Shown here in pieces: positions 25,886 to 29,118 of a DNA stretch of 64,000 bases. The notes beneath the pieces are model-generated. The model was not told the origin of the DNA, ran no database searches, and saw only the letters and a program-made list of their open reading frames with translations. Each line of letters opens with the position of its first letter. The first letter of the stretch is position 1. This DNA comes from Nitzschia sp. pyKryTriq1. Taxonomy: Eukaryota; Bacillariophyta; Bacillariophyceae; Bacillariales; Bacillariaceae. The position numbers were made by a program, and so were the translations under genes. The stretch spans positions 248,001 through 312,000 of the forward strand of contig OY101129.1 in NCBI GenBank assembly GCA_956465555.1, read 5' to 3'.

Positions 25886-26671
25886 ATTTGAATATGACTG
25901 TACCTATGAAACCAAGAAAGGTAGACCTTCTACTCGTAGTACCAACTTCTAAGATGCAAGGCTTTGCTTCTCCTACTCGTATCATATATCATACCATCGT
26001 CAATCGTCAAAGAGAAATTTCTGTCGAAAAGATCTTTTTACAGTCTGTCGGCGTCCGTATCGCATTGCAGTCCCGAATGATTGATTCAGCATTCATTCCA
26101 AATGCGTGTCGTTTGTCGCGTTGTTCGTACGTATAGCGGAGGGTGGGTTTTAATCGGTCAGGTACGCGCTCTACTACCACTCTACTACTACTACTGCTCT
26201 CTAGCTAGAGTAGCTAGCTCTACTACTCTACTACTAGAGCTAGCAGTAGAGTATCGCTGCTGCTACTACTACTACTACTACTCTAGTAGCTAGTAGAGTA
26301 TCGCTACTCTACTACTACTCTAGTAGTAGAGTAGACTACTCGTAGTAGTAGCTATCGCATGCTGCAAATCATAACATTTATGAAGTTCAAGTTGCTGCTG
26401 CTACTAGTACTTGTTGAATACATGTAGAGTTTCACAAACAACTTGCGTTGTATATATTGGGGGCTCATGCACAAGTTTTAAGAGCCACCACACACCGGGT
26501 CCTGTACATACCAGTCATGGGAATGTCAATGATGATAACGAAACCGCCTTCAGCAGTGTTCGTAGAACCAACCCCCCGCCGCTTGGCAGTCTGGATTCTT
26601 GCCGAACGACATCACCAGCACCAGCTGCTTCGGTAGAGTCCTCGTTGAAGAGCGGGGCAGTTTGTGTACTA
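25886..26671. other. Intergenic region with CTA/CTAG arrays
   Basis: Gap between two minus-strand genes. The stretch 26165-26350 is almost wholly built of CTACTA, CTAGTAG, GCTAGC and GTAGAGTA words, which can fold on themselves. The remaining bases show no gene. Confidence 0.6.
26165..26350. repeat. Self-complementary CTACTAG / CTCTAG low-complexity array
   Basis: About 185 bp made of CTACTACTA, its complement TAGTAGTAG and palindromic linkers (AGCTAGAGTAGCTAGCT). Both strands can form hairpins. Similar arrays recur at 12880-12950 and 37915-38250. Confidence 0.8.
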
Positions 26672-28357
26672 CTACCCAAGGAACATGTAATCCAAAGCCC
26701 CAGGGGGAAGGTCCCAACTGGAGAGATCTTGACTGAACGAAGTTGCATGGGTGAACATGTAATCGAACTGGTCTCCGTTTGAAACGTTCCATGGGGCTAT
26801 ATTCCCATTGAAAGACGTTGCATAGGCAAACATCATAGAGAAAACCGATACTCTCGAGACATCCCAGTCTTGCAACGGTTGATTGAATGCAGCTGCTTGG
26901 TAGAACATCGATTTGAAAGTGTGTGCCTTTGAAACGTTCCATGAAGCTATATTCCCGTTGAAAGCTGATGCAAAACCAAACATGGACTCGAAAATCTGTG
27001 CGTTCGAGACATCCCACCCGTGCAACGGTTGGTTGAATGCGGATGCCTTCTCGAACATCCAACTGAAAGTGTACCCTTTAGACACATTCCAATCGTTCAA
27101 GGGCTGATTGAAGTTCGTTGCCCTGGCGAACATTCCCTCGAACCTCTCTCCATTAGACACATCCCAATCGTTCAGTGGCTTGTTAAATTCCGATGCTCCC
27201 AAGAACATTCCGTAAAAATCCGTGATTCTCGACACATCCCAGCAGGAAATATCGGTGTTGAAGGTCGTGGCTTGGGAATTGCGGGAGGAAGAAAACAGAT
27301 GCTGGAAGTCCTTGACATCAGGTCCGAAGCACCAATTGTTAAGATTGTTCCCGTAGGTCGGGACCTGTTGATTTGACATGTACTTATCCACAGCATTCCG
27401 CACTCCGGTCATTGTTGTGAAACAAGACACACGGGGGACACAGGTGCCGTGTGCGCAATTTTCACCAGACGAGCAAACCTTGCCGCAAGCGCCACAGTTC
27501 TGAGGGTCACACAAACCTAAGGGTAAAAACGCAGGGCAAGAAGCACAGTTATTGTCAGAAGAAGTGCCAGAGTAACACCACACCGCTCCTCCTCTACTCC
27601 TACTAGTAGTGGTAGGAGGGCGTACTGGTGTAGGAGTAGTACTATACCAGCCAGCAGTACTACTAGGAGAAGCCGCTGGTGGTAGTACTACTCTATTGTT
27701 GTTCCACCAAGAATACTAATGCCAGTGCACTCGTACGCACCTTTGCACTGACCGTTGCAACACAGATGATCACACACGGTGCCACAACGGCCACAGTTCT
27801 GAGGGTCATTCATCAAATCTAAGGGTCGAAGAAGAAAAGGGCAACAAAAACAGTCAGTGTTAGAAGTGCCGTAGTTGTAGTGGTGGTACTATACTACCAA
27901 CACTACTGCCGTAGGAGCAGTAGCTGGTTGTACTACAACTACTAGTAGTGTGCCACTCGTACGCACCTTTGCACAGGCCGTTGCATTTCATCGTTGAAAA
28001 GCCAACGGATGGTCCGTAGATAGTGGTGGCTGACGTTTGACATGCCCAAAAGGTCTGGCCGTACTGGAGGCCGTCTCTTGGATCTTTATCAAAAGGAATC
28101 CCCGAGTTGCCGACCCATCGACAGTACGCTTCACACGTGTCGCCGTACCAACCAGTAAATCTGTTAGGGTAACCAGTATCTTTTGGCACACAACTGCCTT
28201 GTAAACACCTATTAGGAGCAGCACTACAAACGGAGCCACAATAACCACAGTTCTGAGGGTCATTCATCAAGTCTAAGGGTCAACAAAGAAGAAAAGGGCA
28301 ACAGAAACAGTCAGTGTTGGAAGTGCCGGTGCAACAGCAAGTCTTAGCAGAGTATGA

Positions 28358-28389
<32 letters not shown>

Positions 28390-29118
28390 AGTGTTCCACT
28401 CGTACGCACCTTTGCACAGGCCGTTGCATTTCATCGTTGAAAAGCCAACGGATGGTCCGTAGATAGTGGTGGCTGACGTTTGACATGCCCAAAAGGTCTG
28501 GCCGTACTGGAGGCCGTCTCTTGGATCTTTATCAAAAGGAATCCCCGAGTCGCCCACCCATCGACAGTACGCTTCACACGTGTCGCCGTACCAGCCAGTA
28601 AAGCTGTTGTTGAAACCCACATCAGTGATCGTGAAGAGACGTCTTGTCGTTGGGCTGGCTTCTTCTCCGTCGCCGCCCTCGTCAATCAAGAAGGGCCTGT
28701 CCTCGTCAGCTGCTGGTGGTCCACCGGCAGTTGGATGATCAGAAGTACCTTCCCAGTCCTCCTCGTTCTTCTCCTCCTCGTCAGCACTACGAAGAAGAAC
28801 AAGACCACTCGTACTAGTAGTACTACTATATCGTAAAGCAGCGAAAGTAGTAGTAGTAGTAGTAGTAGTACGACCAGCAGTAGTGGCAGTAAGGCCACCA
28901 TTATCACCACGGCGAAGATGGACGACCCCATCGACCTTGGCTCCGCCGCTAGTATCCAGCCACAAACCTTGTTCGTTCTTCAAGTTGTCATTCTCAGCAT
29001 CAGCAGCATCAGCATCGTCAACATCACCAGTAGCAAGCACGAGACTGATGCCACCACGACCGGACGACAACAAGGTGAAAAAGGCGGTAGTAGCCAAAGC
29101 AAAAGGGTGAAACTTCAT
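26672..29118 (-). CDS. Secreted Stig1-like / DUF285 (BspA-type) repeat protein, 4 exons
   Basis: Exons on the minus strand: 29118-28410, 28272-27967, 27818-27741, 27516-26672; 645 aa, every intron in phase 1 with GTGCGTACGAGTG donors and CCTTAG acceptors. A signal peptide (MKFHPFALATTAFFTLLSS) starts the chain. An acidic, Thr-rich region precedes a ~60-residue Cys module (GWYGDTCEAYCRWVG...CNGLC), which is repeated almost exactly in exon 2. Exons 2, 3 and 4 each begin with a Stig1-like Cys knot (DPQNCG.CG.VC....C..G.C). From ~430 to the end come about eight DUF285 repeats of the form FNQPLNDWDVS...MFARAT. DUF285 proteins are surface or adhesion proteins in bacteria and algae; an extracellular role is inferred. 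The C-terminus is short after the last repeat. Confidence 0.85.
27793..28610. repeat. Tandem duplication of an exon-intron unit (~455 bp)
   Basis: The block 27793-28160 matches 28248-28610: the Stig1 exon start, the CCTTAG acceptor, the intron body with AACAGTCAGTGTT, the Cys-module exon and the donor all recur in order. In the ~205 bp Cys module I count about four differences. A more diverged third copy of the acceptor and exon start lies at 27494-27570. Confidence 0.85.
28364..28388. repeat. (CTA)n run in intron 1 of the DUF285 gene
   Basis: Eight CTA units lie just inside the intron donor. A shorter, broken CTA tract lies at the same place in the other two introns, so the run was copied with the exon unit and has since changed length. 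Confidence 0.8.

What the first reader, a model, noticed from the sequence alone, without database searches (positions are those of the whole stretch)
26672..29118. Secreted Stig1/DUF285 gene growing by fresh tandem exon duplication
All three introns are phase 1 and share donor (GTGCGTACGAGTG) and acceptor (CCTTAG) words. Exons 2 and 3 are symmetric (306 and 78 nt), so each can be gained or lost without a frame change. The Cys module in exon 1 and exon 2 differs by only about four bases in ~205, and the intron text is copied too. This is exon shuffling caught early, in a gene that joins a plant-type Stig1 Cys knot to bacterial-type DUF285 surface repeats.
Basis: partly seen in the sequence, partly recalled or inferred. 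Interest (0 to 1): 0.75.

Follow-up and report, generated by a model that had tools for sequence, protein, structure and literature searches.

The report
Diatom surface-protein gene with duplicated exons
A diatom gene for a probable secreted, cysteine-rich repeat protein carries three related copies of an exon-plus-intron cassette, two of which have nearly identical ends; it is real and neat, but it is a familiar way for repeat proteins to grow and it is probably not as fresh as first thought.

Summary
A minus-strand gene (29118 to 26672) reads through as 645 aa if three phase-1 introns are removed; exons 2 and 3 are 306 and 78 nt; the extended donor word occurs three times in the 40.65-Mb genome, all here. 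Silicon transporters point to a diatom. There are no transcript data, but homology supports splicing: across the exon 1-2 join, 11 of 14 prokaryote loci with the same Cys repeat align without a gap.

(1) The Cys repeat passes Pfam Stig1, but good relatives are common in myxobacteria; plants could not be searched, so 'plant-type' is unsupported. (2) The near-identical piece is a second, unnamed Cys module, found six times at three loci. (3) The array is not simply fresh: the two modules keep different but recognisable starts, the interiors of introns 1 and 2 are unrelated, exon 3 lacks the module. I read it as an older cassette array partly re-homogenised by conversion or unequal crossing-over. 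(4) 'Exon shuffling' between genes is unproved; internal tandem duplication is what the sequence shows.

Known kind of process, new member. Boldest open reading: an exon cassette varying by copy number or splicing.

The parts
28410..29118 (-). Exon 1 (709 nt): possible signal peptide (by eye), low-complexity region with a Thr run, Cys module B1, first half of a Cys repeat (CNGLCK)
   Evidence: no Pfam family at E<=1 in this exon alone
28411..28623 (-). Module B copy 1 (DVGFNN...FTGWYGDTCEAYCRWVG...FWACQTS...MKCNGLCK)
28273..28409 (-). Intron 1 (predicted), 137 nt, phase 1, with a GTA microsatellite
27967..28272 (-). Exon 2 (306 nt): second half of a Cys repeat with its tail, module B copy 2, first half of the next repeat
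27968..28180 (-). Module B copy 2 (DTGYPN...CNGLCK)
28396..28602 (-). Near-identical tract, copy 1: 193 exon nt with 3 differences plus 14 identical intron nt
27953..28159 (-). Near-identical tract, copy 2
28226..28328 (-). Second copied stretch (intron 1 tail plus head of exon 2): 9 of 100 ungapped positions differ from its partner, plus one 3-nt indel
27772..27871 (-). Its partner (intron 2 tail plus head of exon 3)
27819..27966 (-). Intron 2 (predicted), 148 nt, phase 1
27741..27818 (-). Exon 3 (78 nt): Cys repeat DLMNDPQNCGRCGTVCDHLCCNGQCK, no module B
27517..27740 (-). Intron 3 (predicted), 224 nt, phase 1; its 3' part is open in frame with exon 4, so a longer exon 4 is possible
26672..27516 (-). 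Exon 4 (845 nt): last Cys repeat half and DUF285/PARCEL repeats, stop TAG
26729..27028 (-). Two 150-nt direct repeats (73% alike) inside the DUF285 region

Best explanation
A diatom nuclear gene for a probably secreted or cell-surface repeat protein: an N-terminal low-complexity region, Cys-rich repeats of the CNGxC...DPxNCGxCG...C..GxC type (Pfam Stig1) interrupted by two copies of an unnamed module B, then DUF285/PARCEL repeats. The Cys repeat carries a phase-1 intron at the same place in each copy, so [second half-repeat ... first half-repeat / intron] is a frame-neutral cassette. The cassette was tandemly amplified to three intron copies; later, copies 1 and 2 were homogenised over about 207 nt (most of module B plus the intron's first 14 nt) by gene conversion or unequal crossing-over, while the interiors of the introns drifted. 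Shown: the copies, phases, open joined frame, likeness of the intron ends, and that joining rebuilds the repeat. Inferred: splicing itself, secretion, order of events, homogenisation rather than one fresh duplication. Likely role, inferred from family knowledge: an extracellular binding or matrix surface.
For: Joined frame of 645 aa. The Stig1 score rises on joining: exon 2 alone 17.7 bits and exon 3 alone 18.7, exon 4 start alone 21.8, exon 1-3-4 piece 40.4, a read-on into intron 2 gives no family, exon 1-2 piece 25.3, whole protein 52.8; cut-off 24.1. The best stretch, 329-390, crosses the joins that I place at residues 339 and 365. Across the exon 1-2 join, 11 of 14 prokaryote loci align from the first Cys without a gap at the join; of the other three one starts two residues before it, one has a one-residue gap there, one starts at it. 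The extended donor word is unique to the three introns. Sharp left edge: 21 of 38 nt differ just upstream versus 3 of 207 inside. Both module starts fit the D-x-G-[FY]...N of the C1 copies. Likeness of introns against 500 shuffles: for tails 1-2 0, 2-3 0 and 1-3 5 shuffles reach the score; for interiors 2-3 0.
Against: No transcript or strain data. Interiors of introns 1-2 (136 of 500) and 1-3 (353 of 500) are no more alike than shuffles, and the interior likeness of introns 2-3 (score 39, best shuffle 37) lies in CTA-rich sequence. The exon 3-4 join aligns poorly: by my count 12 of 14 loci show a gap at or within a few residues of it. An exon 1-to-4 join adds little (23.0 bits against 21.8 unjoined, still under the cut-off). 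The 14 loci were fetched with a joined query, one of whose six search words spans the exon 1-3 join and one the exon 3-4 join, so they are not fully independent. The contrast between the module tract (3 of 207) and the intron-tail/repeat-head tract (9 of 100; Fisher p 0.0027) used edges chosen after looking, and weakens at silent or intron sites: 2 of the 3 module changes are silent and only 3 of the 9 lie in the intron, so selection could explain much of it.
Confidence: 0.66

Rival explanations
1. A single recent tandem duplication of [module B end / intron / repeat head]; the apparent age differences come from selection on module B and fast microsatellite change in the intron.
For: Few silent changes in the module (2 silent of 3 changes in 192 nt) and 3 changes plus a 3-nt indel in the intron tail are not clearly different; copy order is collinear.
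Against: The 63 nt (SAAPNRCLQGSCVPKDTGYPN) between the copied head and the second module have no counterpart after exon 3's head and end in a proper module start; a plain head-to-tail duplication does not create them.
Confidence: 0.2
2. The 'introns' are partly coding: exon 4 at least starts further upstream, and the Cys-bearing tails are translated or were once coding and became intron.
For: In intron 3, 7 of 8 in-phase upstream AG sites give an open frame into exon 4. The three tails share a Cys pattern in the exon's frame; between introns 1 and 2 the tail differs by a 3-nt indel and two changes silent in that frame.
Against: The third intron-tail change puts a stop into intron 1; in introns 1 and 2 all in-phase upstream acceptors listed (1 of 1 and 7 of 7) meet a stop; a polypyrimidine tract explains much of the likeness.
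Confidence: 0.12
3. Assembly artefact: a cassette wrongly doubled.
For: A 155-nt identical run is a possible misassembly point.
Against: The copies differ in intron length and sequence, in the module starts and in exon 3; the window is one piece (248001-312000) of contig C15 in a 20-contig, 40.65-Mb assembly.
Confidence: 0.04

Closest known systems
Brown-algal ROCO genes with one LRR per exon (PMC11378527, abstract and passages seen)
   Same: Repeat protein of a photosynthetic stramenopile whose repeats lie on frame-neutral exons with introns of one phase, so copies can be gained, lost or spliced differently
   Different: There 72-nt phase-2 LRR exons in many genes, with alternative splicing reported; here phase-1 introns split a Cys repeat, few copies, one gene, no transcript evidence
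PARCEL/DUF285/TIGR02167 surface repeat proteins (PMC2996958, passages seen)
   Same: The protein passes PF03382 and exon 4 passes TIGR02167; that paper reports six such ORFs in the diatom Phaeodactylum tricornutum and none in Thalassiosira pseudonana
   Different: Here DUF285 follows Cys repeats and module B, with introns in the Cys part
Tandem Cys-repeat proteins of Myxococcales/Deltaproteobacteria (e.g. ORFs in L042 and L044); NCBIfam NF041328 MXAN_6577-like
   Same: CNGxC...DPxNCGxCGxxC...C..GxC repeat; 37-59% identical over the aligned part of the exon 1-2 piece in the 14 loci
   Different: The two bacterial ORFs that I looked at are long uninterrupted arrays, by eye without module B or DUF285; NF041328 scores 21.5 and 22.3 against a cut-off of 100
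Plant STIG1 proteins (PF04885)
   Same: The joined protein passes the Pfam cut-off (52.8 vs 24.1 bits)
   Different: No plant sequence was compared

Membership tests
DUF285 / PARCEL (PF03382, TIGR02167) | Score over curated cut-off | tested here: met
   251.8 vs 25 bits; TIGR02167 38.6 vs 30
DUF285 / PARCEL (PF03382, TIGR02167) | Tandem repeats in the protein | tested here: met
   three DUF285 stretches; a 150-nt direct repeat pair
Stig1 (PF04885) | Score over curated cut-off | tested here: met
   52.8 vs 24.1 bits for the joined protein; exons 2, 3 and the start of exon 4 alone stay below
Stig1 (PF04885) | Closest kin in plants | not testable with these tools
   only prokaryote and viral collections could be scanned; 14 prokaryote loci found
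Exon-shuffled extracellular genes (symmetric 1-1 exons; definition recalled) | Internal exons flanked by introns of one phase | tested here: met
   predicted phases 1,1,1
Exon-shuffled extracellular genes (symmetric 1-1 exons; definition recalled) | Same exon with its flanking introns found in another gene of this genome | tested here: not met
   the other module B copies (C1, C3) are 54-61% identical to ours over the matched part and each pair lies in one open frame; the DNA of introns 1-2 with exons 2-3 has no match outside this gene (4 matches, all within it); extended donor word absent elsewhere
Alternatively spliced exon cassettes | Isoforms with exons skipped | not testable with these tools
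   all four skip combinations stay in frame; no transcripts

The most novel reading that the evidence does not exclude
The intron-bearing Cys cassette is a live diversity generator in a diatom: each donor follows a first half-repeat and each acceptor precedes a second half-repeat, all skip combinations stay in frame, and the like intron ends drive copy-number change and conversion, so strains or isoforms differ in the number of modules, as with the brown-algal LRR exons.
Probability: 0.13. Interest if true: 0.6.

Novelty: new member of a known kind. Interest (0 to 1): 0.3.

Why it matters
It is a compact example, outside animals and plants, of how an intron sitting inside a protein repeat lets the repeat be copied or dropped without breaking the frame, and of how such copies can then be kept alike. 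DUF285 is the only domain of unknown function among the top 100 Pfam families of ocean diatoms in the metatranscriptome study PMC11992049 (passages seen), so how DUF285 genes are built is of some interest. Module B is a Cys-rich module that matched no family of its own in the libraries searched.

Tried and rejected
Donor word as a genome-wide splice or introner word: rejected, only these three exact sites exist. A phosphatase-like gene near the C1 relative (L021, label by eye) seems to use a GTAAGT donor (by eye), so GTGCGT is not a fixed donor here. Module B elsewhere: no confirmed relative in viral contigs (14 and 32 pattern stretches, none confirmed) or genome contigs (37, none); solved structures gave two hits at E 0.56 and 2.8 only; exon 2 matched no PHROG at E<=0.1, and exon 1 no NCBIfam at E<=0.1. 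Exon 4: the close-relative scan of viral contigs confirmed nothing, although PHROG families of unknown function match it strongly (best 3.8e-49); no solved chain at E<=1. Structure of exon 2: mean pLDDT 46.2, not used; no fold search was made. A Stig1 family search of the genome gave three matches, none over the cut-off; since it works exon by exon it also fails on this gene, so it does not show uniqueness.

Papers: seven searches. Listings were complete for (3, 1 and 5 papers) and capped for the others (20 of 410, 12 of 37, 8 of 34, 10 of 187). I saw no report of this gene or of a Stig1-DUF285 diatom gene in what was listed. Passages were read in three papers; the rest were seen as listings only.

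The Fisher tests use edges chosen by eye after seeing the alignment; treat them as descriptive.

Full report
What is there. The gene lies on the minus strand, 29118 to 26672. Cutting at the three GTGCGTACGAGTG donors and three CCTTAG acceptors gives exons of 709, 306, 78 and 845 nt and a 645-aa frame with one stop, at the end; all three introns are in phase 1. Retaining any of the three brings stops. The longer donor word GGTGCGTACGAGTG exists at 3 places in the 40.65-Mb genome, all here, against 0 for the reversed control; the shorter word with one mismatch allowed is not above chance in the window. The genome holds eight silicon-transporter matches over the cut-off, seven of them at 873-885 bits; the family rang in one of 14 control genomes, not over the cut-off. 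[quoted passage not shown]

Are the introns real? There are no transcripts here. Homology gives a partial test. Exon 2 alone scores 17.7 bits with Pfam Stig1, exon 3 alone 18.7, the start of exon 4 21.8, all below the 24.1 cut-off; joined pieces score 25.3 (exons 1-2), 40.4 (exons 1-3-4) and the whole protein 52.8, while an exon 1-to-4 join gives 23.0 and a read-on into intron 2 gives nothing. A scan of prokaryote genomes with a joined 64-aa piece gave 63 pattern stretches, of which 14 loci from 12 genomes were confirmed: 12 loci labelled as Myxococcales (or families of it) or Deltaproteobacteria, one unplaced bacterium, one Methanoregula. At the exon 1-2 join, 11 of these 14 run from the first Cys through the join without a gap there, one starts two residues before it, one has a one-residue gap at it, one begins at it. 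The exon 3-4 join aligns poorly: by my count 12 of 14 have a gap at or within a few residues of it; the last repeat is one residue shorter than the others. Two of the six search words spanned joins, so the 14 are not fully independent of the gene model. The two bacterial ORFs that I looked at are long uninterrupted arrays of the repeat. The introns thus most likely sit inside a repeat that is whole once they are removed.

What is copied. There are two kinds of Cys-rich piece. One is the Stig1-like repeat, split by each intron between CNGxCK and [DG]L...DPQNCGxCG. The other, module B (D-x-G-[FY]...GWY...C..YCRWVG...P.D.DP...FWAC.TS...KC), is nearly identical in exons 1 and 2. It gave no family match of its own and was found six times in this genome, as a pair at each of three loci (lower bounds). 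The second copies on C1 and C3 are identical to each other over the 83 residues searched, they are 45% identical to the first copies, and the C1 and C3 copies are 54-61% identical to ours over the matched parts. So a pair is what all three loci have, and only our pair is nearly identical.

How old. From TTTACTGG onward the two modules differ at 3 of 193 exon positions and at none of the first 14 intron positions; two of the three changes are silent. Just upstream 21 of 38 positions differ, yet both sides still spell a module start (DVGFNN, DTGYPN). Against 500 shuffles, the tails of introns 1-2 and 2-3 are alike (0 and 0) and those of 1-3 weakly so (5); the interiors of 2-3 are alike (0, in CTA-rich sequence), those of 1-2 (136) and 1-3 (353) are not. 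The tail-plus-head stretch of copies 1 and 2 differs at 9 of 100 positions with one 3-nt indel. Exon 3 has a related head and a related last 19 bases (17 of 19 as in exon 2) but no module B. A single fresh head-to-tail duplication does not make the 63 nt between the copied head of exon 2 and its module. I therefore prefer an older array with later homogenisation, by conversion or unequal crossing-over, which these data cannot separate. The rate contrast (Fisher p 0.0027) used edges chosen afterwards and is weaker at silent and intron sites, so I do not rest on it.

Fusion partner. The protein passes PF03382 with 251.8 bits and exon 4 passes TIGR02167. The genome search gave 15 DUF285 stretches in five regions, a lower bound. 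Two of them, on C2, hold single-frame ORFs of 702 and 720 residues whose DUF285 blocks begin much like exon 4 (42-55% identical over the aligned start) but carry other Cys repeats upstream. DUF285 in diatoms is known: PMC2996958 (passages) reports six such ORFs in Phaeodactylum tricornutum; PMC11992049 (passages) places it among its top 100 diatom Pfams and shows a solenoid model.

How it probably works (inferred). The protein would be secreted (hydrophobic start, by eye; no predictor was run), with disulphide-rich repeats and a DUF285 solenoid as an extracellular binding or matrix surface. At the DNA level, because every donor follows a first half-repeat and every acceptor precedes a second half, all four ways of using or skipping exons 2 and 3 stay in frame (645, 543, 619 and 517 aa). 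That makes the cassette tolerant of copying, loss and skipping. Whether skipping happens is unknown.

Known or new. The nearest process that I found in a related lineage is the brown-algal ROCO family, where 72-nt phase-2 exons each carry one LRR and are shuffled and alternatively spliced (PMC11378527, passages). The present case is the same kind of thing with other repeats, another phase and few copies. It does not look like an artefact and is not categorically new.

Change made at checking: the confidence of the best explanation went from 0.68 to 0.66, because the poor exon 3-4 alignment, the weak exon 1-to-4 join and the join-spanning search words had been left out of the evidence against.

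Noticed in passing
L021 (G000:C1:4713500-4721000) and L022 (G000:C3:3583500-3591000): The two module-B relatives lie about 24-25 kb from contig ends in copies of one block (four main pieces 91.6-99.5% identical). In C3 the frame of the upstream Cys repeats parts from that of the module B pair, which are one frame in C1. A phosphatase-like gene (label by eye) is part of the block, and a further partial copy of it (88.7%) lies in L022.
   Followed up: partly
L023 and L024 (G000:C2, near 4.05 and 4.16 Mb): DUF285 ORFs in one open frame in which the Cys-plus-DUF285 block occurs twice: internal duplication without introns.
   Followed up: partly
window 27517-27690: The 3' part of intron 3 is open in frame with exon 4 and carries a Cys-rich stretch (CYSGTSSDNNCASCP) whose pattern recurs in the tails of introns 1 and 2.
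   Followed up: partly
window 26160-26350, 28350-28400, 28830-28870: CTA/GTA trinucleotide runs in the flank, intron 1 and exon 1 (there a Thr run).
   Followed up: no
G000:C12:1149998-1150225: A DUF285 stretch with one TAA inside, next to DUF285 stretches in an open 566-residue frame.
   Followed up: no
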